In this document: positions 259 through 15,033 of the stretch, piece after piece
Numbering within the stretch: position 1 is the stretch's first letter
Layout: each line of letters starts with the position of its first letter
Assembly: GCA_030524205.1 (NCBI GenBank)
Contig: JAUNGZ010000026.1
Location: 1-33,852, forward strand
Origin: Eubacteriales bacterium
Lineage (GTDB): Bacteria > Bacillota > Clostridia > Oscillospirales > Butyricicoccaceae
DNA: 33,852 bases
Reading direction: 5' to 3'
Program-made: the position numbers and the translations under genes
Notes under the pieces: generated by a model
What the model was told of the DNA's origin: nothing
Seen by the model: only the letters and a program-made list of their open reading frames with translations
Databases searched by the model: none

Positions 259-454
259 GCGCTTTGCCGGACTGCGTCCGGACAAAGCGCACAGTGAAAA
301 AAGTTCCGACACGCGAAACTTTTTTCGCTCTTTGTATAAAAACCCGTGCGCATGTCGCGGGTTTTTATGAAAATGACCGCGGTGCGGCCATTTTCTGTTT
401 TCATGCGCGCTGCGGCGCGCGGAGCTTTCAATGGGGCGCGCCGTTTGGCGCGCC
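259..454. repeat. Hairpin string between scfA and scfB (6 inverted repeats)
   Basis: Six consecutive inverted repeats fill the gap: 259-290 (8+6 bp, one bulged A, loop TGC); 296-326 (GAAAAAAGTT/AACTTTTTTC, 10 bp, ending in a T-run); 338-366 (AAAAACCCG/CGGGTTTTT, a textbook intrinsic terminator); 369-395 (7+4 bp, loop GGT); 405-420 (GCGCGC-TGCG-GCGCGC); 435-454 (GGCGCGCC-GTTT-GGCGCGCC). The second and third look able to stop transcription after scfA and so lower maturase expression relative to the peptide. The fifth is the reverse complement of a module found in the other strings of this window. Confidence 0.8.
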
Positions 455-484
455 TTGTTTCCTGTATATCGGAGGAAAAAAGAT

Positions 485-1855
485 ATGATCCATCGCTACC
501 AGAAAAACGGACTGAACTTTGTGCTCGACGTGAATTCGGGCGCGGTGCATGTGCTGGACGACGTGAGCTACGCGGTGTCCGGCCTGCTCGACGAGGATAT
601 GGCGGAAGCCTGCCCGGATTCGATTGCCGCCGCGTTGCCGCAGTATGAGGCGGACGCGGTGCGCGAGGCTTACGGCGAGCTGTACGAGCTGAAAAAGTCC
701 GGCCAGCTTTTTGCGGCGGACGATTACATAGATGTCAGCAAATATATCCCGGTCGGCGCGCCGGTAAAAGCGCTTTGCCTGCATGTGGCGCATGATTGCA
801 ACCTCAGATGCAAATACTGTTTTGCGTCGACCGGCGATTTCGGACAGGGCCGCAAGATCATGCCGCCCGAAATTGCAAAAAAGGCGATCGACTTTGTGAT
901 TGCGCGTTCGGGACAGCGGCATAATATCGAGGTCGATTTCTTCGGCGGCGAGCCGCTGATGGCGTGGGATACGGTGACGCAGACGGTCGACTACGCCCGT
1001 TCGCTCGAGCAAAAGGCTGGCAAAAAGTTCCGTTTTACCATTACCACCAACGGCGTGCTGCTCGACGAGGACAAACGCGCCTATATCAATGAAAATATGG
1101 ATAACGTCGTGCTGTCGCTCGACGGACGTCCCTTGGTCAACGACGAGTTCCGCAAGACCGTGAACGGGCAGGGCAGCTATGAGGCGATCGTGCCCAAATT
1201 CAAGGCGCTGGTCGACGCGCGCGACCCGCAGAAGGATTATTACGCCCGCGGCACGTTTACCTCGCACAATCTCGATTTTGCGGACGATGTGACGCATATC
1301 GCCGACGCGGGCTTCGACCGCCTGTCGGTCGAGCCGGTCACCGCCGAAGCGGGCTGCGGCTACGATCTCACCGAGGCCGACCTGCCCAAAATCGAAGCCG
1401 AATACGACCGCCTGACCGAGATTATGCGCGAGCGCAAAAAGGCGGGCAAGCCGTTCTCGTTCTTCCATTTCATGGTCGACCTCGACCAAGGGCCGTGCGT
1501 GGTCAAGCGTCTGCGCGGCTGCGGCGCGGGTTATGAATATGTGGCCGTCACGCCGGACGGCGATATTTACCCCTGCCACCAGTTCGTCGGCAAGGACGAA
1601 TTCAAGCAGGGCAGCGTGCTCGACCAGTCGTTCGACATGGACATCGCGAAAAAATTCGCGTCCATGAATATCTATTCGCGCCCCAAGTGCCAAAAATGCT
1701 GGGCGAAATTCTATTGCTCGGGCGGCTGTTCGGCGGCCAACTACAATATGAACGGTGATATGAACGATTCGTACGATCTCGGCTGTGAGATGGAGCGCAA
1801 ACGGTTGGAATGTGCAATTTACCTGAAAGCGGCGGATCGGCTTTGCGCGGATTAG
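485..1855 (+). CDS. scfB: SCIFF radical SAM maturase, thioether-forming (SPASM domain)
   Basis: 456 residues. The N-terminal ~95 residues resemble the peptide-recognition region of such maturases. The radical SAM signature CNLRCKYC follows (C105, C109, C112), then FGGEPL, typical of the SAM-binding barrel. The C-terminal third is a cysteine-rich SPASM region (GCGAGYEYVAVTPDGDIYPC, KCQKCWAKFYCSGGC, LGC, LEC) expected to bind two auxiliary 4Fe-4S clusters. In the family it cross-links Cys sulfur to Thr alpha-carbons in SCIFF. I chose the ATG at 485 because GGAGG precedes it at normal spacing and it gives the usual N-terminus; an upstream in-frame ATG at 431 lies in the hairpin string. The substrate gene scfA is directly upstream. 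Confidence 0.95.
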   Translation: MIHRYQKNGLNFVLDVNSGAVHVLDDVSYAVSGLLDEDMAEACPDSIAAALPQYEADAVREAYGELYELKKSGQLFAADDYIDVSKYIPVGAPVKALCLHVAHDCNLRCKYCFASTGDFGQGRKIMPPEIAKKAIDFVIARSGQRHNIEVDFFGGEPLMAWDTVTQTVDYARSLEQKAGKKFRFTITTNGVLLDEDKRAYINENMDNVVLSLDGRPLVNDEFRKTVNGQGSYEAIVPKFKALVDARDPQKDYYARGTFTSHNLDFADDVTHIADAGFDRLSVEPVTAEAGCGYDLTEADLPKIEAEYDRLTEIMRERKKAGKPFSFFHFMVDLDQGPCVVKRLRGCGAGYEYVAVTPDGDIYPCHQFVGKDEFKQGSVLDQSFDMDIAKKFASMNIYSRPKCQKCWAKFYCSGGCSAANYNMNGDMNDSYDLGCEMERKRLECAIYLKAADRLCAD

Positions 1856-1893
1856 TCAATGCGCCAAAAAGATGAAATTCCCTGTAAAATGGA

Positions 1894-1923
1894 TTGCAAA
1901 CAGGGCTTTTCCTGTCTTATAAT
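1894..1923 (+). promoter_or_regulatory. Sigma-A-type promoter
   Basis: TTGCAA at 1894-1899 and TATAAT at 1918-1923 are separated by 18 bp, upstream of the gene at 1970. A 9-bp inverted repeat, ATGGATTGC (1889-1897) and GCAATCCAT (1946-1954), brackets the promoter and start site; its role is unknown. Confidence 0.7.
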
Positions 1924-1969
1924 GAAATACGCTATGACCATATGAGCAATCCATGAAGGAGTTGATTCC

Positions 1970-2461
1970 ATGCCGCAGAACGTACTGGTATCGGTGCTGG
2001 GCGAGGGTGAATATTTACAGCCGCTGGTTCGGGCGATTTTGGAGCGGGAAGTCATCCCCGCGCGCAATTTATTTTTATCTTCAAAGAATGCGGCCGCCTG
2101 TCAGGCGGCCGAGGGCTGCGAAGTGCGTATCTGCGAGGATGACGCGGCCGCCATCATCAAAAGCGAAATTGTGCTGGTGACCGCCTCCAAGCGCGAAATG
2201 CCGACACAGCTCGCGCAGATTTCGAACTGTACGCAAAAGCGCGTGGTCGTCACCGTGTGCGACAGCGAACGGGTCGACCTCGCCTATGTGCGCGACCGCA
2301 TCGTCGCGGCGACCGAATTTGTCGCCGCCGTGCTGCACAGGGACGAGGCGGGCAAAGTAAGCGCTGCGTTCGAGATCGCCGAGAAAACGCGCCTGTTTCT
2401 GCATCAGCCGTGCCGCGATCTGGTAAACGCGCTGTGCGACGAGCTTAACGCGGCGGATTGA
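1970..2461 (+). CDS. Stand-alone pyrroline-5-carboxylate-reductase-like NAD(P)-binding domain protein
   Basis: 163 residues. The start (VLVSVLGEGEYLQPLVRAILE) has the position and pattern of a beta-alpha-beta nucleotide-binding motif, and KSEIVLVTASKREMPTQLAQI resembles the second half of the P5CR/F420-type Rossmann fold. Full P5CR is about 270 residues with a C-terminal dimerisation/substrate domain that is absent here. GXGXXG is only partly kept (LGEGEY), so cofactor binding is uncertain. GAAGGAG lies 9 nt before the ATG and a good promoter is upstream. A catalytic function cannot be assigned; a regulatory or degenerate role is possible. Confidence 0.6.
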   Translation: MPQNVLVSVLGEGEYLQPLVRAILEREVIPARNLFLSSKNAAACQAAEGCEVRICEDDAAAIIKSEIVLVTASKREMPTQLAQISNCTQKRVVVTVCDSERVDLAYVRDRIVAATEFVAAVLHRDEAGKVSAAFEIAEKTRLFLHQPCRDLVNALCDELNAAD

Positions 2462-2476
2462 CCGCGTTCTAAAAAC

Positions 2477-2555
2477 AGAAAACCGGGAATATGCTGTTGT
2501 ATGACCTTCCGTAAGGGGGAGACGTATGAGGAAGCGGCATATTCTCGGTTTTTTT
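2477..2555 (+). terminator. Terminator-like hairpin spanning the next gene's RBS and start
   Basis: Positions 2477-2497 pair with 2534-2554 as RNA: 21 bp including four G-U pairs, leaving a 36-nt loop, with the final arm running into seven T (2549-2555). The loop contains the ribosome binding site (AAGGGGGA, 2513-2520) and the ATG at 2526 of the downstream membrane protein. It may terminate the upstream gene, attenuate the downstream one, or both. Confidence 0.65.
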
Positions 2556-3065
2556 GATTCACTGGTGCGCACGCCTGCGTTTTTGTTCCTGTGCGCGATG
2601 TTTCTCTGCGGCGCGGTGGCCGGCGGGCTGACCGGCCTGCACGCCGGAGAAGGGGATAACGCGGTGCGCCTGACGGCCATGCTGTCCGCCCTGCCCGCAC
2701 AGGCGGCGAAAAGCGTGCTTTGCGCGGTGCTTTGGGTGGCGCTGCCGCTTTTGTGCGCGCTGCTGCGCCCCGCGGCGCTGTTTTTGTCCGCGCTGACGGC
2801 GGCGCGCGGCTTTGTGCTCGCGCTGACCGTCGCGGTCGGTATCGGACAGGCGGGAAGTTTCGGGCTGTCGCTGTGCGCGACCGGCGTGCCCGCCGTGCTG
2901 TCCGTGCCCGCGCTGCTCGCGGCGTGCGCGATGGTCTGGCAGAGCGGCGAGGCAACGGGGCGCTATTCGCTGCGCGGCTGCCGCGCGCCGTATGTGCTTT
3001 GTCTGACGCTGGCGGCGGCGTCAGCGATGGTGAGAGTGGGATTCGCGGTTTTGTGGAATTTGTGA
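2526..3065 (+). CDS. Polytopic membrane protein, possibly SpoIIM/DUF95-like
   Basis: 179 residues with about five hydrophobic segments (roughly 18-38, 62-80, 85-108, 112-135, 158-178). A short basic N-terminus (MRKRH) precedes the first. The opening membrane segment with GAVAGGLTG and the later GVPAVLSVPALLAA resemble SpoIIM, a B. subtilis engulfment protein of about 210 residues, but this protein is shorter and the match is by eye only. The start is supported by AAGGGGGA 5 nt upstream; both sit inside the loop of a long hairpin. A terminator follows the stop directly, so this is the last gene of its transcript. Confidence 0.5.
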   Translation: MRKRHILGFFDSLVRTPAFLFLCAMFLCGAVAGGLTGLHAGEGDNAVRLTAMLSALPAQAAKSVLCAVLWVALPLLCALLRPAALFLSALTAARGFVLALTVAVGIGQAGSFGLSLCATGVPAVLSVPALLAACAMVWQSGEATGRYSLRGCRAPYVLCLTLAAASAMVRVGFAVLWNL

Positions 3066-3100
3066 AAAGAGGCGCGCGGCGTTGCTGCGCGCCTCTTTTT
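3066..3100 (+). terminator. Intrinsic terminator
   Basis: GAGGCGCGC/GCGCGCCTC stem with a 9-nt loop followed by TTTTT, immediately after the 2526-3065 stop codon. Confidence 0.85.
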
Positions 3101-3166
3101 ATGATAGAATAATTGTAATAATCGGAGGACTTGGGGTGGTTCTTTTCAAAAGGAAGGATCAAAGAT

Positions 3167-3799
3167 ATGAAATTTCAAAACAATGTGAAATCCTATCTCA
3201 CGGCTATTGGTTTGGGCGCGGCAGCCGGTTTGCTGACGACCGTGCTCAATCTGTTTCCGTATGATACGCTGTGGAGCTTCAGCTCGATTGCAAGCGCGTT
3301 CGGGTTCTGGATCATTACAACCACATTAGTGATATATGCGAGCTGCTCCAATGTAAACGCGGCTGTTAACACTTTTTTGTATTTAGGCACGATGAATCTG
3401 GTGTTTTACAGCATGCAAGGCGTGCTGGGGCTGTTTTTGCCGAGGTTTTATAGCGTGGATTCCTTTATCAACTGGGGCCTGCTCAAGCGGTTTACCCTGC
3501 TGGCGCTGCTGTGTGCGGCTGTGGCGTTTGTGCTGTATTATTGGAATCGGGACAGCAAATTCAGCAGCTTTTTGTATGCGCTGCCGTTGTGCGGTTTGGT
3601 GGCCGAGTTGATCGGTGCGTGCGTTTTCCTCTGGCAGACGCACACCTATCTGTTTCAATTACTGATGGATGCGGCGGGACTAGCGTTTCTGCTCTCGCGG
3701 TTCTGGAAAAAAGCAGCCTCCAAACCGCTGTTGTTGGCAACGGCGGCAGTCGGCGGCGCGGCGGGCGCGTATCTGTTTTATCTGCCAAACCTTTTGTGA
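3167..3799 (+). CDS. Membrane protein of unknown function (six or more TM segments)
   Basis: 210 residues, strongly hydrophobic, with segments near 10-30, 40-60, 65-90, 105-128, 138-158 and 190-208. WNRDSKFSSF and FWKKAASK mark likely cytoplasmic loops. I do not recognise a named family. The ATG at 3167 has AGGAAGGA 8 nt upstream; an in-frame TTG at 3131, which also has GGAGG in front, would add 12 residues. I prefer the ATG because it gives a normal short basic lead (MKFQNNVKSYL) before the first membrane segment. Less GC-rich than its neighbours. The gene is monocistronic between terminators. Confidence 0.6.
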   Translation: MKFQNNVKSYLTAIGLGAAAGLLTTVLNLFPYDTLWSFSSIASAFGFWIITTTLVIYASCSNVNAAVNTFLYLGTMNLVFYSMQGVLGLFLPRFYSVDSFINWGLLKRFTLLALLCAAVAFVLYYWNRDSKFSSFLYALPLCGLVAELIGACVFLWQTHTYLFQLLMDAAGLAFLLSRFWKKAASKPLLLATAAVGGAAGAYLFYLPNLL

Positions 3800-3816
3800 T
3801 TTTGCGTGTTTTATAG

Positions 3817-3856
3817 AAAAAACGCCTGCGGAGTAAAAAACCGCAGGCGTTTTTCG
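3817..3856. terminator. Bidirectional terminator between convergent genes
   Basis: AAAACGCCTGCGG/CCGCAGGCGTTTT stem with A-rich and T-rich flanks. It serves the plus-strand membrane protein and thiC on the minus strand, which ends 6 bp away. Confidence 0.9.
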
Positions 3857-3861
3857 TTATT

Positions 3862-5184
<1,323 letters not shown>

Positions 5185-5246
5185 TTTTATTGCTCCTTTT
5201 TTAATACCCGTCAAAGCGGTGCGCTCTCGCGGGCGAATTGGCGTTG

Positions 5247-5275
5247 TTGCGGGGGATTTGATAATATGATATAAT
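5247..5275 (+). promoter_or_regulatory. Promoter of the AT-rich lipoprotein gene
   Basis: TTGCGG (5247-5252), 17-bp spacer, TATAAT (5270-5275), 36 bp before the ATG. Confidence 0.65.
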
Positions 5276-5310
5276 GAGCCCAATAAATCGGAATTGACGG
5301 AGGTAACTTT

Positions 5311-5766
5311 ATGAAAAATATGGTAATTCTATTCGTTATGCTTTTAAGCATGGCTGGTTTGACAGCGTGTGTGAGTGCTAACGCTAATGCGCCTAACACA
5401 TCAAGCGAGAATAACACAACTATTGAAATGAAATTAGATGAAAATTATGATGATACAGACCCTTTTATCAATGAACGATTATTTTGTGTATCAGAAGATT
5501 TGTCCACTTTAACCGCTGAGGGAACTTTTGAAATGGACGGCGAAAGCGGCATTTTAGAAGTAAAAGACAACAAAACAAAGGAAGTCTTATGGAGTAATAC
5601 ATGGGAGGGAAGTGTTAAATCAGAAATCTTTTCAATTTCACTTGAAAATTTAAAAAAAGAAACGGAATATGCAATGTCTTTTACTGGAACAAAAATAAGC
5701 TATGCTACTATAGGAATCTCCTTTGAAAGTGATCTGGTACAGGAGAGAGAAGAGCCATTGCGATAA
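5311..5766 (+). CDS. Small lipoprotein, AT-rich, unknown function
   Basis: 151 residues. The signal peptide ([16 protein letters not shown]) ends in a lipobox, L-T-A-C with Cys20 as the lipidation site, so the protein should be anchored on the outer face of the membrane. The mature part is acidic and mostly predicted beta ([48 protein letters not shown]), which suggests a small beta-sandwich. GGAGG precedes the ATG. Codon use is strikingly AT-rich (AAA, GAA, ATT, TTA) among G/C-biased neighbours, and the gene runs opposite to thiH and thiC on both sides. I infer recent acquisition; the function is not recognised. Confidence 0.8.
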
Positions 5767-5804
5767 CTTCCAGTTTGTGTGAAAGAAAAATTCCAGTTTA
5801 TCGG

Positions 5805-5831
5805 GCGGCCGCGCTTGGCGCGGCCGCTTTT
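5805..5831 (+). terminator. Intrinsic terminator
   Basis: GCGGCCGCGC-TTG-GCGCGGCCGC, a perfect 10-bp stem with a triloop, followed by TTTT. It separates the lipoprotein gene from convergent thiH. Confidence 0.85.
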
Positions 5832-5856
5832 GCTATGCAAGGGGTATCAAAACCGG

Positions 5857-7035
5857 TTACACGTATAAATAATCCGCCATAACGGGCTGCAGGCCGTGGC
5901 TTTCGATGGCGGCGTATACCTCGTCGACCGAGCGGCCGTCCGAGATTTCAAACTGCTCGTCGCCCTTATCCTCGCCCGAGTGGCCGCCGATGCCGACGTC
6001 CACGCCCGCCGAAATCTTAGTTGCGGCGATGCCGATGATGTTGTCGCGGAAGCCCGCGCGCTCGCGCGTCGAAATCGTGATGGACGCGAACGGCATGAAG
6101 ATGCGGTAGGCACAGACCACCTGCAAAAGCTGCGGCTCGTGCACGTCCTTGGGGTTTATTTTGTCGTTGTTGATGATCGGCCGCAGGCGCGGGCAGGAAA
6201 ACGCGATTTCGGCGTGCGGATATTTGCGCTGGAGCAAATAGGCGTGCAGGCCGGTCGCAAACGCGTCCTTTCGGAAGTCAGACAGGCCCAAAAGCGCCGC
6301 GAAGCCGACTCCGCGCATACCGCCCTTCAGCGCGCGCTCCTGCGCGTTCAGCCGGTAGGGGAAAATGCGCTTGTGGCCGCCAAGGTGCAGGGTCTCGTAC
6401 TTGTCCGCGTCGTAGGTTTCCTGAAAAACGGTCACGTAGTCCACGCCGCATTCATGCAGGTAGGCATACTCGTCTACGTTCAGCGGATAAATCTCCACGC
6501 CGATGACGCGGAAATACTTGCGCGCGAGTCTTACCGCCTCGCCGATGTATTCGACGGGCGACATTTTGCGGCTCTCGCCGGTCAGCAGCAGAATTTCCTG
6601 CAGGCCGGTGGCCGCGATGGCTTGCAGCTCGCGTTCGATCTCGTCCGCGTCGAGCTTGGCGCGGCGGATTTTGTTGTGGCAGTTGAAGCCGCAGTAAATG
6701 CAGTAATTTTCGCAGTAGTTGGCGATATACAGCGGCGTGAACATCTGCACGGCGTTGCCGAAGTGCTTGCGGGTCTCGGCCTGCGCGCGCGCTGCCAGCT
6801 GCTCTAAAAACGGCGCGGCGGCGGGGGAGAGCAGGGCGGCGAAATCGTCCGGCGACAGCACGTCCTCAGCCAGCGCGCGGCGCACGTCGGCGGCGGTATA
6901 GCGGGACGCGTCGTAGGCGTTCATGCGGGCGACGACCTCGTCCTGCACCTCGCTGCCGATGTCGTCCATGCCGGGCTGATACTGCATATGATCGGTTTCG
7001 CGGGTGATGTATTTTGCGGAAATGACATTGCTCAT
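5857..7035 (-). CDS. thiH: 2-iminoacetate synthase ThiH
   Basis: 392 residues. A radical SAM enzyme that cleaves tyrosine to dehydroglycine and p-cresol, providing the glycine-derived part of the thiazole ring used by ThiG. The cluster motif is CENYCIYCGF (C108, C112, C115). YPLNVDEYAYLHECGVDYVTVFQETY, HLGGHKR and the C-terminal ITISTRERAGFRDN and GDEQFEISDGRSVDEV blocks are typical of ThiH. AGAAGGG precedes the ATG at 7035; the frame is open upstream, but those residues translate a hairpin string. ThiG lies 242 nt upstream on the same strand, separated by that string. Confidence 0.96.
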   Translation of the reverse strand: MSNVISAKYITRETDHMQYQPGMDDIGSEVQDEVVARMNAYDASRYTAADVRRALAEDVLSPDDFAALLSPAAAPFLEQLAARAQAETRKHFGNAVQMFTPLYIANYCENYCIYCGFNCHNKIRRAKLDADEIERELQAIAATGLQEILLLTGESRKMSPVEYIGEAVRLARKYFRVIGVEIYPLNVDEYAYLHECGVDYVTVFQETYDADKYETLHLGGHKRIFPYRLNAQERALKGGMRGVGFAALLGLSDFRKDAFATGLHAYLLQRKYPHAEIAFSCPRLRPIINNDKINPKDVHEPQLLQVVCAYRIFMPFASITISTRERAGFRDNIIGIAATKISAGVDVGIGGHSGEDKGDEQFEISDGRSVDEVYAAIESHGLQPVMADYLYV

Positions 7036-7084: not shown

Positions 7085-7282
7085 GGGGCAAGGGCCGCAG
7101 CCCCAACCTTCGCGCCGCAGCGCGCTTTCGCGGCCACAGGCCGCTTTATCGTTTCACGGCTTCGCCGCGAAACGATACCCCTGCCCTTGGACACGTGTCC
7201 AAGGCCGCGCCCGCCGTGCGGGCGCGAGAGGGTTATCGCCGCCACCGGCGGCGTATCTAAGGGGGACAGCGTCCCCCTTAGA
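7085..7282. repeat. Hairpin string between thiG and thiH (8 inverted repeats)
   Basis: Eight adjacent inverted repeats: 7085-7104 (GGGGC/GCCCC); 7112-7123 (GCGC-CGCA-GCGC); 7130-7144 (GCGGCC-ACA-GGCCGC); 7147-7177 (9+4 bp, one mismatch, loop TTC); 7185-7204, a perfect 20-bp palindrome centred on ACGT; 7206-7226 (CGCGCCCGC-CGT-GCGGGCGCG); 7237-7253 (CGCCGCC-ACC-GGCGGCG); 7256-7282 (12-bp stem TCTAAGGGGGAC, loop AGC). The last overlaps the thiG stop codon. I see no coding gene in the gap. The final module recurs at 33751-33799. Confidence 0.85.
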
Positions 7283-8042
7283 GTTCTAAAAAGCCGGTGA
7301 GCGGCGAGGAGGCCGAAGCGGTATCGCGCACGCGGCCAAGGCCGGAGAGATAAGCCGTGCGTCCGGCCTCGATCGCTTTCTTGAACGCCTCGGCCATTGC
7401 GGGCACGTCGCCCGCCGTGGCGATGGCGGTGTTCGCCATGACCGCCGCCGCGCCCAGCTCCATCGCCTCGCACGCCTGCGAGGGGCGGCCGATGCCCGCG
7501 TCCACGATGATGGGCAGGTCGATCTCGTCGATCAGGATTTTGATGAACTCGCGCGTCGCCAGCCCCTTGTTGGTGCCGATGGGCGCCGCGAGCGGCATGA
7601 CCGAGGCCGCGCCCGCATTGACCAGATCGCGCGCGACGTTCAGATCGGGATACATATACGGCATGACGACGAAGCCCTCGTTGGCAAGGATATCGGTCGC
7701 GCGGATGGTTTCCTGATTGTCGGGCAGCAGGTATTTGCTGTCCCGCATAATCTCGATTTTGACGAAATCACCGCAGCCGCATTCGCGTGACAGCCGGGCG
7801 ATGCGCACAGCCTCGTCGGCGTTCCGCGCGCCCGAGGTGTTGGGCAGCAGGGTCACGCCCTTGGGGATGTAGTCGAGGATGTTTGCCGCGCCGCCCTCGT
7901 TCGCGCGGCGCAGCGCGAGCGTGATGATCTGCGCGCCCGCGTTTTTCACGGCGGCGTTGATGAGGTCGAGCGAATACTTGCCCGAGCCGAGAATGAAGCG
8001 GGACGTAAATTCCCGTCCGCCGAGGATGAGTTTGTCGTTCAT
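7278..8042 (-). CDS. thiG: Thiazole synthase ThiG
   Basis: 254 residues. ThiG builds the thiazole phosphate from deoxyxylulose phosphate, dehydroglycine and ThiS thiocarboxylate. [19 protein letters not shown] at the N-terminus, the Schiff-base lysine in DFVKIEI (K95), [13 protein letters not shown] and [20 protein letters not shown] are family hallmarks. The start at 8042 (MNDKLILGG) has AAAGGAG about 10 nt upstream and the usual length; an upstream frame extension would overlap the mscL promoter. It is separated from thiF by mscL on the other strand, and I see no convincing promoter of its own in the 91 bp to mscL. Confidence 0.97.
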
Positions 8043-8073
8043 GTGAAAAAAGCTCCTTTTGTCGAATCCTGCC

Positions 8074-8102
8074 TTGACCGGGAAAACCAAGGCGTGTAAA
8101 CT
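8074..8102 (+). promoter_or_regulatory. Promoter of mscL
   Basis: TTGACC (8074-8079), 17-bp spacer, TAAACT (8097-8102), 31 bp before the ATG. Confidence 0.7.
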
Positions 8103-8133: not shown

Positions 8134-8553
8134 ATGAAAAAGTTTTTTGAGGAGTTTAAGGCCTTCGCGCTGCGCGGCAATGTGATGGATATGGCAATCG
8201 GCGTAATTATCGGCGGCGCGTTTTCGTCCATCGTCACTGCGCTGACCGATAACCTGATCTCGCCGATTCTGGGCATGCTGGGCGGCGCGAATTTCGACCA
8301 ATATTCGGTGACGCTTTTGGGCGCTGAATTTCGGTATGGCGCTTTTCTTACCGCAGTGATCAATTTCATCATCATGGCGCTCGTGCTGTTCTGCCTGCTC
8401 AAGGCCGTCAATAAGATGACGCACCTTGGCAAAAAGCCCGAAGCGCCCGCCGCTCCCACCACGAAAATCTGTCCGTACTGCTGCTCGGAAATCCCGATCG
8501 CGGCGACTAAATGTGCGCATTGCGCGTCTGAACTGCCGAAAACAGCGGAATAA
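8134..8553 (+). CDS. mscL: Large-conductance mechanosensitive channel MscL with C-terminal zinc ribbon
   Basis: 139 residues. FKAFALRGNVMDMAIGVIIGGAFSSIVTALTDNLISP is the MscL pore-forming first helix; a second TM segment lies at 70-92. The channel opens under membrane tension to release solutes on osmotic downshift. The C-terminus adds a CPYC/CAHC pair (C113, C116, C127, C130), a probable zinc ribbon that also occurs in other Clostridial MscL proteins. The ATG at 8134 starts the canonical sequence; the ribosome binding site is weak. The gene sits in opposite orientation between thiG and thiF. Confidence 0.95.
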   Translation: MKKFFEEFKAFALRGNVMDMAIGVIIGGAFSSIVTALTDNLISPILGMLGGANFDQYSVTLLGAEFRYGAFLTAVINFIIMALVLFCLLKAVNKMTHLGKKPEAPAAPTTKICPYCCSEIPIAATKCAHCASELPKTAE

Positions 8554-9246: not shown

Positions 9247-9271
9247 CTCTCGTCCCCCCGTCCTTCGTCCC

Positions 9272-9569
9272 CGCGCGCCTTTCGGCGCGCGCATAAGGAT
9301 ATCGGCTTTGCCTCGCAAAGCCCTCCCCAAGGCAGCCGCCATCAGGCGGCGAGCCTTTACCCCCGCGCCGCAGCGCGCGCGCCGACAGGCGCGATTTCAT
9401 CCGGAAACGGCTCTGCCGTTTCCATCGAAAAGCCCAGCTTCGCCGGGATTTTCGATCCCCCGACCCCAGCGGCCCCGGGCCGCGCCGTTCGGGTATCGGA
9501 AGGGAGTTTATAAAACTTCCTTCCGTATCCAGAGGGCTTTTGAAGCCCCCTGAAGAGCGCGAAGCGCTC
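9272..9569. repeat. Hairpin string between thiF and thiS (10 inverted repeats)
   Basis: The 321-nt gap contains no gene but about ten inverted repeats in a row: 9272-9291 (CGCGCGCC/GGCGCGCG), 9304-9322 (GGCTTTG/CAAAGCC), 9335-9350 (GCCGCC-ATCA-GGCGGC), 9365-9376 (GCGC-CGCA-GCGC), 9378-9393 (CGCGCC-GACA-GGCGCG), 9403-9423 (GGAAACGGC-TCT-GCCGTTTCC), 9425-9455 (TCGAAAA...TTTTCGA with inner CCC/GGG), 9497-9525 (13 bp, loop ATA), 9534-9548 (GGGCTT-TTG-AAGCCC) and 9555-9569 (GAGCGC-GAA-GCGCTC). The last overlaps the thiS stop codon. This is the longest string in the window. Confidence 0.85.
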
Positions 9570-9762
9570 ATCCTCCGCCAACAAACTGCACGATCTCGAG
9601 CGTGTCGCCGTCGTCGAGCGGCTCGTCCGGAAATGCGGCGCGCGGGACGATCCGCCCGTTTTTCTCCACCGCGACGCGGGCCGGGTCGTGCCCGAGCTTG
9701 ATCAGCAGAGACTGAACGGTCAACGCGTTCTCACAAGGCATGTTTTTTCCGTTTATTTTCAA
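9568..9762 (-). CDS. thiS: Sulfur carrier protein ThiS
   Basis: 64 residues of the ubiquitin-like fold (MKINGKNMPCENALTVQSLL, RVAVEKNGRIVPR, DGDTLEIVQFVGGG). The C-terminal Gly-Gly is adenylated by ThiF and converted to a thiocarboxylate that donates sulfur to ThiG. The start is TTG at 9762, 5 nt after GAAGGG; the next in-frame ATG (residue 8) would remove the first strand, so TTG is preferred. It is the first gene behind the TPP riboswitch. Confidence 0.93.
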   Translation of the reverse strand: MKINGKNMPCENALTVQSLLIKLGHDPARVAVEKNGRIVPRAAFPDEPLDDGDTLEIVQFVGGG

Positions 9763-9782
9763 AATATCCCTTCTTTCGGCAT

Positions 9783-9821
9783 AAAAAACGCTCCGGTTTC
9801 ACCATGCGGTAAAACCGGAGC
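9783..9821 (-). terminator. Riboswitch terminator upstream of thiS
   Basis: On the minus strand, GCTCCGGTTT pairs with AAACCGGAGC and is followed by a T-run, between the TPP aptamer and the thiS ribosome binding site. This is the expected expression platform: TPP binding favours termination. Confidence 0.88.
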
Positions 9822-9849
9822 ACTGAAATTTACGCGTTCTTTTCGATGC

Positions 9850-9940
9850 GACAGCTTCCCTACGATGGTGCTAACCAACAGGTTCAAAGGGTTAGGCTCT
9901 CGCCCTCTCAGCCGCTCATCACGGCACCCCTGCTTGCAAG
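9850..9940 (-). promoter_or_regulatory. TPP riboswitch (THI element)
   Basis: The minus strand carries the conserved THI-box blocks in order: AGGGGTGC, GGCTGAGAGG, ACCCTTTGAACCTG, TGGTTAGCACCA and GTAGGGAAGC. These form the thiamin-pyrophosphate-binding aptamer. It lies downstream of a strong promoter and upstream of an intrinsic terminator and thiS, so it should repress the thi transcript when TPP is plentiful. Confidence 0.96.
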
Positions 9941-9944
9941 ATTC

Positions 9945-9973
9945 AGTATAGGCCCGCGCGGCGGACTTGTCAA
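9945..9973 (-). promoter_or_regulatory. Promoter of the thiS transcript
   Basis: Minus-strand TTGACA (9968-9973), 17-bp spacer, TATACT (9945-9950), just upstream of the riboswitch. Its -35 overlaps the -35 of the divergent dinB promoter. Confidence 0.85.
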
Positions 9974-9995
9974 GTGTCAAATTATGCGGTAAAAT
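9967..9995 (+). promoter_or_regulatory. Promoter of dinB
   Basis: TTGTCA (9967-9972), 17-bp spacer, TAAAAT (9990-9995). It shares its -35 bases with the divergent thi promoter, so both polymerases probably cannot bind at once. I see no clear LexA box. Confidence 0.7.
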
Positions 9996-10029
9996 AAAAG
10001 AAACAAATGTTCGGAGGGGAGGGCGCGCC

Positions 10030-11259
10030 ATGGACCGCACAATACTGCACTGCGACTGCAACTCGTTTTATGCGTCGGTGGAAACGCTGCTCGACCCCTC
10101 GCTGGCCGACGGGCCGAGCGCGGTCTGCGGCGATCCGGAAAGCAGGCACGGCATTATACTTGCCAAAAACGAGCAGGCGAAGAAATACGGTGTAAAGACG
10201 GCGGAAACCATCTGGCAGGCCAAGCGAAAATGTCCCGAGCTGCGGCTGGTCGCGCCCCACCGGGAGGAATACGTCAAATTTTCGCGCCGCTGCAACGAGC
10301 TGTATCTGCAATATACCGATCTGGTAGACCCGTTCGGCATTGACGAATCGTTTTTGGACGTGACGGGCAGCCTGCACCTGTTCGGCACGGGAGCGGAAAT
10401 CGCGGACGAGCTGCGCCGCCGGATGCGGCAGGAGATCGGGCTGACGATTTCGGTCGGCGTGTCGTTCAACCGCGCGTTCGCCAAGCTTGGCAGCGATTAC
10501 AAAAAACCGGACGGCACGACTGTCTTTTCACGCGAAAATTACCGCGAAACAGTTTGGCCGCTGCCGGCGGACACGCTGCTTTACGTCGGCAAAAGGGCGA
10601 TGGACCGGCTCGAACGCCTAGGGGTGCGCACGATCGGCGATTTAGCGGCGTGCGAGCCTGCGCTGATGCACAGCGTGTTCGGCAAGATGGGGGACACCCT
10701 GCTCCGTTATGCGCGCGGTGAGGACGACGAGCGCGTGCACTCCTTTTACGAGGAACGCGAGGTCAAGTCGGTCGGCAACAGCATGACCTTCGCGCACAAT
10801 CTTGTGGGCGAGGACGAGTGCCGCATGGGGCTGACCGCGCTGTGCGACAATGTCGGCCGCCGCCTGCGGGGGCGGGGGCTGATGTGCCAAACCGTGCAGC
10901 TTATCATCCGCGATCCGGATTTCAAAAACCGCTCGCGCCAGACGACGCTCGAGCGTCCGACCAATTCCACCCGCGCGCTGATCGAGGCGTCGATGGCGCT
11001 GCTGCGCGCGAACTGGACGCAGGGCAGGCCGGTGCGGCTGCTGTCGGTGACGGCGACGGGCCTGCTGCCCGAGACGCAGGCCTGCGAGCAGCTTTCCCTG
11101 TTCGACGCGGCGGGCGCGGCCGCGTCGCGAGAGAAGCAGCACCAGCTCGACCAAACCGTGGATGAGCTGCGGAGGCGGTTTGGAGACCGGTCGGTCGTTT
11201 TTGCGCATTCGGTGCGAAAAACAGAGGGAAAAAACGAAAAAACAAAGAAAATGCCATGA
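10030..11259 (+). CDS. dinB: Y-family DNA polymerase IV-like (DinB)
   Basis: 409 residues. HCDCNSFYASVE (catalytic D9), the second catalytic pair in GIDESFLDVT (D105, E106) and SVGVSFNRAFAKLGSDYKKPDG are Y-family polymerase motifs. A helix-hairpin-helix region (LGVRTIGDLAACEP) and a little-finger domain follow. Such enzymes copy damaged templates with low fidelity. CGGAGGGG precedes the ATG at 10030. The C-terminal tail (VRKTEGKNEKTKKMP) is basic; I see no obvious beta-clamp motif at the extreme end, but LSLFD (near residue 360) fits one. It runs divergently from the thi transcript. Confidence 0.93.
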   Translation: MDRTILHCDCNSFYASVETLLDPSLADGPSAVCGDPESRHGIILAKNEQAKKYGVKTAETIWQAKRKCPELRLVAPHREEYVKFSRRCNELYLQYTDLVDPFGIDESFLDVTGSLHLFGTGAEIADELRRRMRQEIGLTISVGVSFNRAFAKLGSDYKKPDGTTVFSRENYRETVWPLPADTLLYVGKRAMDRLERLGVRTIGDLAACEPALMHSVFGKMGDTLLRYARGEDDERVHSFYEEREVKSVGNSMTFAHNLVGEDECRMGLTALCDNVGRRLRGRGLMCQTVQLIIRDPDFKNRSRQTTLERPTNSTRALIEASMALLRANWTQGRPVRLLSVTATGLLPETQACEQLSLFDAAGAAASREKQHQLDQTVDELRRRFGDRSVVFAHSVRKTEGKNEKTKKMP

Positions 11260-11297
11260 TTTCCGCCTTCCTCTGCGACGCAGCGCGCATACAAAAG

Positions 11298-11502
11298 GGA
11301 AATGCGGCAAGCCGCATTTCCTATAAAAAGCGCGAGCTTTGCCCGCGCTTGCTCTCATCTTATCGCTGCACGGCGGCGGTAAGATGAGAGAGGCTATGGG
11401 CTTATACAAAGGCGAAGCGCCGTCGGAATTTTGATTCCGGCGGCGCTTCGGCGCAATGGGCCGAACGGCCGTCTCTCAAACCGAACTGTACGTTCGGTTT
11501 GA
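11298..11502. repeat. Hairpin string between convergent dinB and the MocR-type gene
   Basis: The 255-nt gap between two 3' ends holds at least six inverted repeats: 11298-11321 (GGAAATGCGGC-AA-GCCGCATTTCC), 11328-11350 (AAGCGCG/CGCGCTT), 11352-11390 (CTCTCATCTTA/TAAGATGAGAG, 17-nt loop), 11413-11450 (17-bp stem with one G-T, loop TTTG), 11459-11470 (GGCC-GAAC-GGCC) and 11476-11502 (TCAAACCGAAC/GTTCGGTTTGA). A GCGACGCAGCGC module variant lies just before at 11275-11286. Two of the units recur in the 14860-15033 string. None is followed by a long T-run. Confidence 0.85.
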
Positions 11503-11514
11503 CCGCCAAGAGAT

Positions 11515-12912
11515 TCATTTCCACGCCTGCCGCAGCAGGCGGACGGCCTCCGCGATCTGCGGCTCGGTCAGGCCCGCGTAACCCAAAACAAGAGTAGCGC
11601 GCGGCGGTTTGGCGGGAGCGGTATAGTAGCCCGACAGGCCGTATACGCGAACGCCCGCCTCGCGGGCGCGGGAAATCAGGGTCTGCTCGTCCATGCCGTT
11701 TGGCACGGACAAAAGGATGTGCAGCCCGGCCTCCGCGCCCGAAACCGAATAGGGCAGGCCGGTAAACTCGCGGGCAAGCGCGTTCAGCAGCGCGTCGCGG
11801 CGCGCCTGATAGACCTTGCGGCTGCGGTTAATGTGCCGTTCAAAGCCGCCGGTGCGCATGAATTTGGCAAGCGTGTGCTGCTCAAAGCTGGGCACGGTAG
11901 AGGAGTACAGGGAAAACCGCTCGCGGTACCGCGCCATAAGGGCGTCGGGCAGCACGAGATAGCCGATGCGCAGGCTGGGCGCGAGGCTTTTGGCGAAGGT
12001 ATTGACGTAAACGACGCGTCCCGCGCGGTCAAGCTCGCCCAGCGCCGGGATGGGGCGGGAGGAATAGCGGAACTCGCTGTCGTAATCGTCCTCGATGATA
12101 TAGCGGTCGGGCGCGGCGGCGGCCCAGCGCAGCAGCTCGGCGCGCCGCGCCGCGGGCATGACCGTGCCGAGGGGGAAATGGTGCGAGGGCGTCAGATAGA
12201 CGGCGGAGGCGTCGCTCGCGGCGAGCGTGTCGGCGCGCAGGCCGCTGCCGTCCAGCGGGATGGGGCGCACCGCCGCGCCGTTTGCCGCAAAGATTTGGTA
12301 CAGCTTGCGGTAGCCCGGGTTTTCCAGCGCGTAAACGCGGCCGCGTCCCAAAAGCTGAATCATCAAATGGATCAGGTATTCCGAACCCGCGCCGATCAGA
12401 ATATTATCGGCCGGCACGTTGATGCCGCGGAAATCGTATAAATAGCGCGCGATCTGCTCGCGCAGCTCCAACGCGCCGTTCGGCGCGGCCGCGCGCAGCA
12501 GTTGGTCGGAATATTCGGACAAAACAGCGCGCGACAGCCGGGCCCAGGTGGAAAAGGGGAAGCACTCGGTGTCGACGATGTTGGTGCGGAAGTCGAAGCG
12601 GCAGCCGTCGTCCGGCCGGGGGGCGGCGGACGGCGTGCTCGGCGCGGCGGGCGCGGGCGGCGGCATCAGAAGCTGCTTTTGCACGAAATAGCCGCGCCGC
12701 GGTTCGGATTTGATATAGCCCTCGGCGAGCAGCTGGCCGTAAGCGGTTTCGACCGTGATTTGACTGACGCGCAGGTGTTCCGCAAACTGCCGCTTGGAGG
12801 GCAGCCGGTCGCCGCCCGCGAGCGTGCCGGACATAATATCCGCGCGCACGGCGCGGTAGAGCTGCTCGTACAGCGGCGTTTTGGCTTTTGCGTCAAGATG
12901 GTAGGTGAGCAT
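11515..12912 (-). CDS. MocR/PdxR-type regulator (GntR HTH + class I aminotransferase)
   Basis: 465 residues. Residues 10-80 form a GntR winged helix (LYRAVRADIMSG, GDRLPSKRQFAEHLRVSQITVETAYGQLLAEGYI). A Pro/Ala linker (83-100) leads to an aminotransferase fold with EDDYDSEF and the PLP lysine in NTFAKSLAPSLRIGY (K308). Members sense PLP or amino acid aldimines and often control vitamin B6 or amino acid genes. No pdx gene is nearby, so the target is unknown. AAAGGAAA precedes the ATG at 12912. The DUF5655 gene ends 20 nt upstream, so the two are probably one transcript. Confidence 0.9.
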   Translation of the reverse strand: MLTYHLDAKAKTPLYEQLYRAVRADIMSGTLAGGDRLPSKRQFAEHLRVSQITVETAYGQLLAEGYIKSEPRRGYFVQKQLLMPPPAPAAPSTPSAAPRPDDGCRFDFRTNIVDTECFPFSTWARLSRAVLSEYSDQLLRAAAPNGALELREQIARYLYDFRGINVPADNILIGAGSEYLIHLMIQLLGRGRVYALENPGYRKLYQIFAANGAAVRPIPLDGSGLRADTLAASDASAVYLTPSHHFPLGTVMPAARRAELLRWAAAAPDRYIIEDDYDSEFRYSSRPIPALGELDRAGRVVYVNTFAKSLAPSLRIGYLVLPDALMARYRERFSLYSSTVPSFEQHTLAKFMRTGGFERHINRSRKVYQARRDALLNALAREFTGLPYSVSGAEAGLHILLSVPNGMDEQTLISRAREAGVRVYGLSGYYTAPAKPPRATLVLGYAGLTEPQIAEAVRLLRQAWK

Positions 12913-12932
12913 GGCGGTTTTCCTTTCCGGCG

Positions 12933-13322
12933 TTACCGTTTGGCGGCGGAGAGCGCGTAGGACGCGGCGAGCCAGCCCAGCAGCTCGGCGTCCGCCTGCG
13001 CGGGGTCGGTCAGCAGAACGTGGTGCGTCCAGCGGTTGGGGCAGGGCTCGACGGCCTGCGCGACGCGGGGCGAATCCAGCCGGTACGTCAGGCCGAAGGT
13101 GACGACCAGACAGACCGCCGGCCAGCCCTTCAGCCGCCGCACGGGCAGGGAGGCGAACGCAAACCGGCGGCGGTTGGAAAACGCGATCTGCGTTTTCTGC
13201 ACGGTGATCTCCACCGGGTCGAACGCGGCGCATATTGCGTCCTCCAGCGCCTGATAGATAGGAAAAACATCGGGCATTTTTTCAAAAAAATGCAGGATAT
13301 CCAATTCGGTAAACGCGGACAT
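12933..13322 (-). CDS. DUF5655-like protein
   Basis: 129 residues. DPVEITVQKTQIAFSNRRRFAFASLPVRRLKG followed by LVVTFGLTYRLDSPRV and WTHHVLLTD matches my memory of the DUF5655 domain, a YdhG/DUF1801-like small fold found alone or after other domains. Function unknown. Its ATG immediately follows a T-run, and its ribosome binding site (AAGGGGGG) is the 3' arm of a terminator hairpin; a promoter inside that hairpin solves the problem (see 13358-13386). It is likely co-transcribed with the MocR-type gene 20 nt downstream. Confidence 0.75.
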   Translation of the reverse strand: MSAFTELDILHFFEKMPDVFPIYQALEDAICAAFDPVEITVQKTQIAFSNRRRFAFASLPVRRLKGWPAVCLVVTFGLTYRLDSPRVAQAVEPCPNRWTHHVLLTDPAQADAELLGWLAASYALSAAKR

Positions 13323-13377
13323 AAAAAACCCCCCTTCCGGCTGGCCTTGTTAAAACAAGCATACCAGCCGGAAGGGG
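13323..13377 (-). terminator. Terminator of the auxin-efflux-carrier gene, overlapping the next gene's leader
   Basis: Minus strand: CCCCTTCCGGCTGG (13377-13364) pairs with CCAGCCGGAAGGGG (13344-13331), with an inner CTTGTT/AACAAG, followed by six T at 13328-13323. The T-run abuts the ATG of the DUF5655 gene at 13322. Confidence 0.85.
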
Positions 13378-13386
13378 CGATGTCAA
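13358..13386 (-). promoter_or_regulatory. Promoter nested in a terminator, driving DUF5655-MocR
   Basis: Minus-strand TTGACA (13386-13381, overlapping the carrier's stop codon), exact 17-bp spacer formed by the terminator's 5' arm, and TATGCT (13363-13358) preceded by TG as an extended -10. Transcription should begin near 13350 in the hairpin loop, giving a leader that contains only the 3' arm, so the ribosome binding site stays free. Confidence 0.7.
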
Positions 13387-14327
13387 ATCAGTCCCGCCGA
13401 CCGCAGGATAAACAAAATGACCGTCAGCGTGACCGCGCTCAAGGCGGTCGACAGCACGATGATGGACGAGGCCAGCACATGGTCGCCGCCCATGTTTTTC
13501 GCCATCACGTAGCCCGTGACCGTGCTCGGCGCGCCGTACAGGATGACCAGCGCGACCATGGTCTGACCGGTAAAGCCCAGCAGCGCGGCGACGGGCAGGA
13601 AAAGCAGCGGCAGGCCGATCAGCTTGATGAAAACCGCCGCGCAGGTCGGCCCAAGCTTTTTGACGGCCTTGGCGCCCTCGAACCCGGCGCCGATGCTGAG
13701 GAGCGCAAGCGGCGTGGCGCAGCCCGCGAGCAGGTCGAGCCCCTTGGACAGCATGGGCGGGAAGTCGATTTGCAGCAAAGAAAACGGCAGGCCCGCGAGG
13801 ATGCCGAGGATGATCGGATTGGTTACGATGCCGCCCAGCGTGCGCGCGGCGACGCCGTGGTGCTGCTCGCCCTTCGGGGCGGTCACGGCCAGCACCAGCA
13901 CGGAGTAGATGTTGTAAAGCGGCACGGTCGCCACAATCATCAGCGGCACCAGCCCGGCGTTTCCGTACATATTCTGCACGAAGGCCACGCCCAGAACCGC
14001 CTGTGAGCCGCGGAACGCGCCCTGCGTGAACGCGCCGACCATGCTTTTATCGGGCAGCAGCACTGCCGCGCCCAGCCAGACGGCGAAAAAGTAAAGCGTG
14101 GTCGTGCCGGCGCAGAACAGGAAAAAGCGCAGGTCAAACTGCTCGGTGATGCGTCCGCCCGCAATATCGCGGAACAGCAGCACAGGCAGCAGCACCTTGA
14201 ACACGAGCCGGTCCAGATCGCCCAGCGTCGCCGGGGCAAAAAAACGCCGCCCGCGCAGCAGGCGGCCCAGCAGGATGACCGCAAAAACCGGAACGGTCGC
14301 GTTCAGGCAGAAAATCAGGTTATCCGT
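13383..14327 (-). CDS. Auxin efflux carrier (AEC) family transporter with probable ACG start
   Basis: 314 residues if translation begins at ACG 14327. About ten TM segments; GSQAVLGVAFVQNMYGNAG, IVTNPIILGILAG and ATPLALLSIGAGFEGAK fit the AEC/malate permease family, usually 300-320 residues. The frame stays open and family-like upstream of the first normal start (GTG 14204), giving DNLIFCLNATVPVFAVILLGRLLR, the expected first TM helix. No ATG, GTG or TTG occurs in that part. GGGAGGG stands 7 nt before ACG, exactly where ATG is expected, and the codon overlaps the marR stop. The alternatives are CTG 14318 or a mutated start. Substrate unknown. Confidence 0.8.
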   Translation of the reverse strand, partial: TDNLIFCLNATVPVFAVILLGRLLRGRRFFAPATLGDLDRLVFKVLLPVLLFRDIAGGRITEQFDLRFFLFCAGTTTLYFFAVWLGAAVLLPDKSMVGAFTQGAFRGSQAVLGVAFVQNMYGNAGLVPLMIVATVPLYNIYSVLVLAVTAPKGEQHHGVAARTLGGIVTNPIILGILAGLPFSLLQIDFPPMLSKGLDLLAGCATPLALLSIGAGFEGAKAVKKLGPTCAAVFIKLIGLPLLFLPVAALLGFTGQTMVALVILYGAPSTVTGYVMAKNMGGDHVLASSIIVLSTALSAVTLTVILFILRSAGLI

Positions 14328-14784
14328 TGCCGTTCCCTCCCGAACCGGACTCCTCCGAAAGGAAAAAGTCCTGCAATTTTTCCAGACTCTGCGCCAAAAC
14401 GGCGGCCTGCTCGGGCGTGAGCGTGTCCATCACCGAGGCGACCATACGGCTGTGGAAGGCCTTATGGTATTCGTAGGCGGCGCGCCCCTTGTCCGTCAGC
14501 GTAACGTTGACGACGCGGCGGTCGTTTTTGTCACGCTTGCGGCGGACCAGCTCCTTGGCCTCCAGCTTATCGCATGCGACCGTCAGCGTGGCAAGCGTAA
14601 CGCCGATGGATTTGGCGACCTCGCTCATGCGGATCGGCTCCATCGCGCCGATTTTCTCGATAATATGGATTTCAGTGATCGAAATGGAACTGCCAAGCCC
14701 GTCTGCCATGGCGCGTTCCTCGATTTTGTTGACGCGGCCGAACACGTCGACCAGAAAGGAGTTGATTTGCTCCGCGCCGCCCAT
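14320..14784 (-). CDS. MarR family transcriptional regulator
   Basis: 154 residues. ISITEIHIIEKIGAMEPIRMSEVAKSIGVTLATLTVACDKLEAKELVRRKRDKNDRRVVNVTLTDKGRAAYEYH is the MarR winged helix-turn-helix with the DRR wing. Such dimers usually repress a neighbouring transporter and release DNA on ligand binding. Its stop overlaps the probable start of the AEC carrier by 8 nt, so the carrier is its likely target and the pair is translationally coupled. A palindrome suited to autoregulation lies 23-39 bp upstream. The C-terminus is Gly/Asn-rich (GSGGNGNG). AAGGCGGTG precedes the ATG. Confidence 0.9.
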   Translation of the reverse strand: MGGAEQINSFLVDVFGRVNKIEERAMADGLGSSISITEIHIIEKIGAMEPIRMSEVAKSIGVTLATLTVACDKLEAKELVRRKRDKNDRRVVNVTLTDKGRAAYEYHKAFHSRMVASVMDTLTPEQAAVLAQSLEKLQDFFLSEESGSGGNGNG

Positions 14785-14806
14785 ATCCGCACCGCCTTTC
14801 CATCAC

Positions 14807-14823
14807 TTACTTATACTAACTAA
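14807..14823. promoter_or_regulatory. Putative MarR operator
   Basis: TTACTTA-TAC-TAACTAA, a 7-3-7 palindrome with one mismatch, in the AT-rich region just upstream of the MarR gene start. Size and position suit an autoregulatory MarR site. Confidence 0.5.
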
Positions 14824-14859
14824 ATACTAGCATAATAACGTGAAAAATGCAAATAAAAA

Positions 14860-15033
14860 AGGGCTTGCCGTTCAGCGGCAGGCCCTGTTCGCCATTTCTT
14901 GCGCCGCAGCGGGCAGTTTCATGAAAAGTGCGAGCTTTGCCTGCGCTTTTCGTATAAACAGAGAAACGGCCGCGGAATCAAAATTCCGCGGCTGTTTGTC
15001 TGCAATAGCCCTTTCCGTCTTCGCCGGAAGGGC
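14860..15033. repeat. Hairpin string downstream of the sulfite reductase gene (5 inverted repeats)
   Basis: Five inverted repeats: 14860-14886 (AGGGC-T-TGCCG/CGGCA-G-GCCCT, with a T-run on the minus strand, so a real terminator), a GCGCCGCAGCG module at 14901-14911, 14923-14951 (GAAAAGTGCG/TGCGCTTTTC, loop GAGCTTTGCC), 14964-14997 (15-bp stem around GGAAT-CAAA-ATTCC) and 15008-15033 (GCCCTTTCCG/CCGGAAGGGC). The 14923 and 14964 units match units in the 11298-11502 string. No gene is visible between 14785 and 15070. Confidence 0.8.

What the first reader, a model, noticed from the sequence alone, without database searches (positions are those of the whole stretch)
259..15033. Strings of adjacent short hairpins fill five intergenic gaps next to gene 3' ends
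Five gaps (259-454, 7085-7282, 9272-9569, 11298-11502, 14860-15033) are almost wholly made of back-to-back inverted repeats, about 35 in all, many with 3-5 nt loops and stems of 4-17 bp. Each string lies between a stop codon and the next gene, and two overlap a stop codon (thiG, thiS). Only a few hairpins have T-runs, so they are not all terminators. Elsewhere in the window gaps hold just one ordinary terminator. This looks like a modular 3'-end element family: possible roles are RNA 3'-end protection, transcription/translation insulation, or a mosaic of tiny mobile palindromes comparable to REP/BIME elements but with varied units.
Basis: seen in the sequence. Interest (0 to 1): 0.75.

Follow-up and report, generated by a model that had tools for sequence, protein, structure and literature searches.

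The report
Mobile hairpin mosaics at gene ends
The five hairpin strings are copies of one modular, hairpin-packed element family of the gut-bacterial genus Agathobaculum that repeatedly appears just behind genes in the reading direction and keeps its hairpins while their sequence is rewritten; what it does is not yet tested.

Summary
All five gaps fold far better than shuffled sequence, and 41 of 433 gaps in a 776-kb sample of the genome hold strings. They are copies of one dispersed, modular family with two interchangeable heads: A (7085-7282, 9272-9569) and B (227-454, 11298-11502, 14860-15064). Covariance models match 25 of 25 genomes of the genus (Agathobaculum) and 3 of 35 other relatives examined. 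In 67 A elements, 96% of stem cells pair and 47 of 54 pairs show two-sided changes. A elements lie in sense orientation behind an upstream gene in 53 of 53 cases, with the next gene on the same strand in 54 of 55; four follow SRP RNA. B elements are sense in 28 of 34. Orthologous spacers exist filled and empty, and A and B heads swap between close relatives. So this is a REP/BIME-like mobile mosaic, but with rewritten stems, Y1 transposase matches in only 5 of 25 genomes, and strict sense placement of head A. A 3'-end border role is my inference; how it spreads is unknown. New variant of a known kind.

The parts
227..454 (+). Head-B element behind the SCIFF gene (89-235), before the SCIFF maturase gene (485-1855); first hairpin 227-255 includes the SCIFF stop codon
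   Evidence: R2 match 227-369, 128.9 bits (this element is one of the 15 rows from which R2 was built); z -6.2 for 259-454; 41 other matches of 255-460 in the genome
7085..7282 (-). Head-A element behind thiG (7278-8042, minus), before thiH; first hairpin 7256-7282 overlaps the thiG stop
   Evidence: R1 match 7125-7281, 48.3 bits; z -7.0; 5 other matches in the genome
9272..9569 (-). Head-A element, long form, behind thiS (9568-9741, minus), before thiF; hairpin 9555-9569 overlaps the thiS stop
   Evidence: R1 match 9399-9553, 152.9 bits (one of the 12 rows of R1); z -7.2; 17 other matches in the genome
11298..11502 (-). Head-B element behind a PdxR-like MocR regulator gene (11515-12912, minus), in a convergent gap
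   Evidence: R2 match 11356-11502, 36.2 bits, E 2.7e-7; z -9.9; 41 other matches in the genome
14860..15064 (-). Head-B element, partly degenerate, behind a sulfite-reductase-like gene (15071-15961, minus); ends in a terminator-like hairpin (14866-14880)
   Evidence: R2 match 14920-15064, 48.8 bits; z -3.9 for 14860-15033; terminator-like site; 32 other matches in the genome

Best explanation
The five strings are copies of one dispersed, non-autonomous, modular palindromic element family of the genus Agathobaculum. An element is a head of three hairpins (type A or B) followed by a tail of two or more hairpins of a kind that both types share. Shown: elements are present or absent at orthologous spacers, heads and hairpins are exchanged, stems are rewritten while staying paired, and copies sit in sense orientation at the 3' end of the upstream gene (53 of 53 for head A; 28 of 34 for head B). 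Inferred: the element spreads as a mobile, REP/BIME-like palindrome mosaic, probably through its folded single-strand form, and is kept where, co-transcribed behind a gene, its back-to-back hairpins act as a border: a block to 3'-5' decay of the upstream segment and to coupling with the downstream cistron, with the tail hairpins as weak terminators at most.
For: Many copies with a common hairpin order. Two-sided changes: 29 of 54 pairs in 12 sequences, 47 of 54 in 67, covariation 0.529 against 0.142 shuffled and at most 0.098 when slid. Sense placement 53 of 53, downstream gene on the same strand 54 of 55. Four elements lie 23-28 nt behind SRP RNA, so the rule is 'behind a transcribed unit', not only behind a stop codon. 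Filled and empty sites: infA-rpmJ 2 of 16 filled, rpmA-obg 5 of 19, with the flanking leader or terminator-like hairpin kept; fewest changes on one tree 2 and 3, and 5 head changes at rpmJ-rpsM. Two identical tail-hairpin alleles on A and B heads. One copy lacks exactly one hairpin. Elements sit between neighbours such as rpmJ-rpsM, rpsJ-rplC and pheS-pheT, so they are unlikely to be full terminators there, unless unrecognised promoters follow.
Against: No RNA data. Strand symmetry argues against pure RNA-level selection: in A stems G-U (44 apart from one fixed pair) does not exceed A-C (65), unlike 17 to 0 in ten tRNAs; antisense folds score better than sense in all five gaps. Six of 34 B elements are antisense, some just upstream of a gene start. 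No mobilising enzyme was found: Y1 transposase matches in 5 of 25 genomes; other enzyme families were not searched. No target-site duplication was recognised by eye. Elements at orthologous sites are barely more alike than unrelated copies (0.679 against 0.633), so stable function of one sequence at one site is not shown.
Confidence: 0.55

Rival explanations
1. Purely selfish or neutral palindromes: they spread by a DNA-level process and persist behind genes only because insertion there does least harm; stems stay paired by template-switch correction of quasi-palindromes, not by selection.
For: Strand-symmetric pairing with few G-U in head A; fast turnover at orthologous sites; B elements sometimes antisense. 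In the window the SCIFF hairpin uses the end of the coding sequence as one arm (read directly at 227-255).
Against: Neutral tolerance does not by itself give 53 of 53 sense copies, 49 of them within 4 nt inside to 28 nt beyond the gene end, nor the rarity of head A in convergent gaps.
Confidence: 0.28
2. Structured RNA regulators: a family of cis-acting or processed RNAs whose conserved caps (GGC-NNA-GCU, GCGCAUGUC) are bound by a protein.
For: Conserved linkers and two recurrent hairpin caps; in B stems G-U (23 apart from one fixed pair) exceeds A-C (14).
Against: No Rfam match at gathering score and only sub-threshold ones with E 0.09-0.9; no common function seen by eye among the flanking genes.
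Confidence: 0.09
3. Clusters of transcription terminators.
For: Tail hairpin T1 has A-runs before and T-runs after the stem; hairpins are densest in convergent gaps; six terminator-like sites lie in the five gaps.
Against: Head A is rare in convergent gaps (1 of 55) and lies between co-directional genes; only six of some 31 hairpins have terminator-like tails, one of them on the strand opposite to its element; at rpmA-obg the terminator-like hairpin is separate and is present in filled and empty sites alike, 18 of 19 by one pattern.
Confidence: 0.06
4. Decayed genes or chance.
For: None found.
Against: Shuffles, repeated homologous copies, covariation.
Confidence: 0.01

Closest known systems
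REP / BIME (palindromic units and bacterial interspersed mosaic elements of enterobacteria)
   Same: Extragenic palindromes in many copies, close to gene 3' ends, a fraction of them within 15-20 nt of a stop codon (passages of PMC12306157); mosaics of several units (recalled)
   Different: REPs are described by shared consensus motifs (passages of PMC12306157), here several stems are freely rewritten; strict sense orientation in head A; up to nine hairpins per string; no Y1 transposase match in 20 of 25 genomes
SLS repeat families such as Efa (Enterococcus), Ype (Yersinia), Bor (Bordetella)
   Same: Repeats spanning stem-loops; [quoted passage not shown]
   Different: Only passages of that paper were seen; no sequence comparison was run; head swapping and stem rewriting are not described in the passages seen
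Double hairpin elements of fungal and algal mitochondria (recalled)
   Same: Mobile hairpins said to vary in stem sequence
   Different: From memory only; none of the ten papers listed holds the term; two hairpins, organelles

Membership tests
REP/BIME | Extragenic, multi-copy palindromes near gene 3' ends | tested here: met
REP/BIME | Mosaic of units in different combinations | tested here: met
   Head swap and shared tail alleles; lost hairpin
REP/BIME | Conserved palindrome sequence motif | tested here: not met
   50, 40 and 43 distinct stem alleles in 67 elements for H2, T1 and T2; 669 two-sided changed cells. H1 and H3 are more conserved (12 and 15 alleles), and linkers and caps recur. 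The E. coli motif itself was not searched
REP/BIME | Associated Y1 (RAYT) transposase | tested here: not met
   PF01797: 0 in own genome (81.9% complete), 5 of 25 in the genus, 4 of these over the cut-off, 4 of 15 near-complete genomes, while 25 of 25 carry elements
Intrinsic terminators | Hairpin plus T-run ending transcription | tested here: inconclusive
   Some hairpins fit; termination not measurable here
Known Rfam RNA families | Match above gathering score | tested here: not met
   Window: only a tRNA and a TPP riboswitch; in six element loci only TPP and sub-threshold matches
Transposon-like insertion sequence | Target-site duplication | tested here: inconclusive
   None seen by eye in filled and empty spacers; no systematic test

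The most novel reading that the evidence does not exclude
A new class of mobile palindrome mosaic that is recognised by fold rather than by sequence: a single-stranded (perhaps RNA-templated) intermediate is inserted in sense direction at the 3' ends of transcribed units, including SRP RNA, by an enzyme that is not a Y1 transposase, and palindrome-restoring copying keeps the hairpins paired while their sequence runs free.
Probability: 0.15. Interest if true: 0.85.

Novelty: new variant of a known kind. Interest (0 to 1): 0.62.

Why it matters
It gives a natural experiment: operon spacers such as infA-rpmJ, rpmA-obg and rpmJ-rpsM exist in related species with no element, head A or head B, so the effect of a hairpin string behind a gene on mRNA ends and cistron ratios could be read directly. 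The stems offer a rich record of paired changes (669 two-sided cells in 67 elements) with few half-way states, useful for deciding whether palindromes are kept by selection or by copying errors that restore them. It also adds a REP/BIME-like mosaic in a genus of Clostridia where most genomes show no Y1 transposase.

Tried and rejected
Rfam: no family for the elements. Phages, plasmids and IMG/VR: no match to one A element in each of 'plasmids' and 'phages' and none for two exact patterns in viral contigs. The thi locus of 80 genome records: R1 matches at E up to 1 in one record only, L127, so the window's own positions are not widely shared. Hairpin density at the thi locus in 32 of those 80 records: above shuffles in most, Agathobaculum or not; gene calls fail there for low-GC genomes, so I drew no conclusion. 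G-U against A-C as a test of RNA-level selection: no excess in A, modest in B (23 against 14 without one fixed pair), not decisive. Linkage between module alleles: above permutation for five of six pairs tested, most clearly for H1-H2 and H2-T1, and not for H1-T2; modules are neither fully linked nor free, and relatedness was not controlled. Paper searches with no relevant hit; led to PMC12306157 and PMC1590033, of which I saw only the passages; one search was seen as a listing only.

Row selection: the 55 A elements are the 12 own-genome rows of 99 bits or more (of 55 rows), the top 22 rows (of 39) and 21 rows from three genomes; one search lists more rows than were fetched, and its own list is cut. 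For B, one search used 36 of 66 rows: all 34 of 47 bits or more, plus L100 (40.7 bits, antisense) and window 11356 (36.2, sense); three other rows of 36-41 bits (L087, L081, L086), one that is an A element (L104) and all weaker rows were left out. By the gene of 34 are sense; one of the seven others (C28:50321) proved to follow a DUF815 gene on its own strand that my caller had missed in favour of a shadow frame, hence 28 of 34. For A, one search used 13 of the 55 R1 rows (12 strong ones and window 7125); low-scoring R1 rows include opposite strands and B elements. The B pairing counts use the best 27 of 66 rows. The orthologous-spacer counts leave out genomes whose contig ends cut the pair (rpmJ-rpsM 17 printed; G007, cut, was labelled A in the tree; the infA-rpmJ and rpmA-obg counts on the tree use 16 of 18 genomes each). 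Notebook figures '5 of 21' and '18 of 18' are wrong; one search prints 19 and 17.

Full report
WHAT IS THERE. The window is contig C38 of a genome of 2.21 Mb in 47 contigs, 81.9% complete. The five gaps lie behind SCIFF, thiG, thiS, a PdxR-like regulator gene and a sulfite-reductase-like gene. Each folds much better than its shuffles.

A DISPERSED FAMILY. Each gap, used as a DNA query against its own genome, gave further matches: 5, 17, 41, 41 and 32 beyond itself for the gaps at 7085, 9272, 11298, 259 and 14860. Some are the two strands of one palindrome, and only 40 candidates were scored in each search, so these are neither exact counts of places nor upper limits. Twelve copies of the thiS-thiF string, window included, align over a core of about 156 nt with the same order of hairpins. 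In gene sense the A element reads: hairpin H1 (TATAGGGGGCTTCAAAAGCCCCCTATA type), H2 inside TACG...CGATA, a bulged H3, tail hairpin T1 with a GGC-NNA-GCU cap, T2, and then varied further hairpins. One copy (C5) lacks H2 alone. The B element has its own H1', H2' and H3' and the same kind of T1 and T2. T1 occurs with two main caps, GGC-NNA-GCU and GCGCAUGUC; two complete T1 alleles are found on both heads.

PAIRED CHANGES. RNAalifold gave 54 pairs with 29 changed on both sides in 12 A copies, and 37 pairs with 27 changed on both sides in 15 B copies. Model R1 collected 67 A elements, the 12 it was built from included: 96.0% of cells paired, 47 of 54 pairs with two-sided changes, 669 such cells against 155 in shuffles, covariation 0.529 against 0.142, and at most 0.098 with partners slid. 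The alignment was fitted to the model, which favours the structure, but the shuffles and slides are far below. Half-way states are rare and not biased to G-U: 44 G-U apart from one fixed pair, 65 A-C and 76 other, of 3554 cells; ten tRNAs of the same sample gave 17 G-U and no A-C among 215 pairs. B leans to G-U, 23 against 14 apart from one fixed pair. So head A does not fit simple RNA-level selection and leaves room for palindrome-restoring copying or selection on single-stranded DNA; B is undecided.

PLACEMENT. For 55 strong A elements from 17 genomes, the upstream gene is in sense in all 53 where one was called; 49 of these start between 4 nt inside and 28 nt beyond the gene end, six of them supplying the stop codon themselves. 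The other four lie about 350 nt beyond a called gene because SRP RNA lies between, ending 23-28 nt before the element. The downstream gene is on the same strand in 54 of 55; in the sample, 70 of the 353 convergent and tandem gaps are convergent. Flanking pairs look like classical operon neighbours: rpmJ-rpsM, rplI-dnaB, rpmA-obg, rpsJ-rplC, pheS-pheT, ilvC-ilvD, frr-uppS, grpE-dnaK (names recalled from the protein starts printed, not from a family search). For B, 28 of 34 elements of 47 bits or more are sense: 27 by the gene calls, and one more behind a DUF815 gene that my caller had missed. Of the 27, 22 start 1-8 nt behind the stop. Six are antisense; one of these lies just upstream of a gene that reads like infB, in reverse orientation.

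GAIN, LOSS AND SWAP. At infA-rpmJ, 14 of 16 genomes have a spacer of 98-127 nt and two (G000, G017) carry an A element between the stop codon and the conserved leader. At rpmA-obg 5 of 19 carry one, 12 have 68-117 nt, and two are longer without a match. At rpmJ-rpsM all 17 carry strings, 11 with head A and 6 with head B (heads assigned by reading). On a tree of 18 genomes from DNA downstream of rpsM, 5 of whose 15 inner branches are well supported, these need at least 2, 3 and 5 changes. The well-supported sisters G023 and G015 differ in head type, as do G006 and G018 (weaker support). G008 has an A head with a T1 of the kind common in B. G015 has a nested insertion in H1 and a second, antisense element at rpmA-obg. 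Elements at orthologous sites are only a little more alike (0.679, 81 pairs) than others (0.633 between genomes, 0.641 within).

RANGE. R1 matches in 25 of 25 genomes of the genus, 1 of 12 genomes of other genera of the family, 0 of 23 genomes of other families of the order; R2 in 25 of 25, 1 of 12 (G036, 51 matches) and 1 of 23 (one match). Both searches used stricter filters and scored only about 50 candidates a genome, so weak relatives may be missed. No match in the plasmid and phage collections or, for two patterns, in IMG/VR.

MECHANISM. Shown: dispersed, modular, present or absent at orthologous sites, swapped, paired, mostly sense, at 3' ends. Inferred: mobility through a folded strand, and retention where the co-transcribed string borders the upstream RNA. 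E. coli REPs are reported to stabilise mRNAs and, within 15 nt of a stop, to lower translation (passages of PMC12306157); the spacing here would allow both, but the cases behind SRP RNA argue that translation is not required. A Y1 transposase is unlikely to be the general carrier: 11 of 15 near-complete genomes show no match.

NOVELTY. Architecture and placement are those of REP/BIME and of stem-loop repeat families; the freely rewritten stems on a fixed scaffold, the head swap and the strict sense placement of head A set it apart. Paper searches on Agathobaculum or related groups with palindromes listed no description of it in the held library, which lacks most subscription journals.

Noticed in passing
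L112, about 7978-8075 and 8360-8463 (own genome, before rpmJ and rpsM); L236-L252: Two conserved structured leaders before rpmJ (16 of 16 genomes aligned) and rpsM (17 of 17), the latter with a GCCTC that could pair with the ribosome-binding site; no Rfam match at E 0.01 in five loci. Possibly undescribed ribosomal-protein leaders.
   Followed up: partly
window 33751-33852: A sixth, cut-off string: two TCTAAGGGGGAC-type hairpin starts like that of thiG follow the stop of the gene 32566-33744, then the contig ends. No R1 or R2 match was listed there.
   Followed up: partly
G036 (another genus of the family): 51 matches to the B model although 11 other genera of the family have none: a related string family may exist there.
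   Followed up: no
L275 (G015 rpmA-obg spacer): First hairpin carries a nested insertion in its loop, and a second A element lies antisense in the same spacer.
   Followed up: no
L214, L217, L222, L232: A element between SRP RNA (RF01854) and a dnaX-like gene in four species.
   Followed up: yes
window 9840-9941, minus: TPP riboswitch upstream of thiS.
   Followed up: no
window 13323-13382: Short gap with a very strong fold (z -8.0) that is not one of the five strings.
   Followed up: no
G010:C1: Nine Y1 transposase matches in this genome while 20 of 25 genomes of the genus have none.
   Followed up: no
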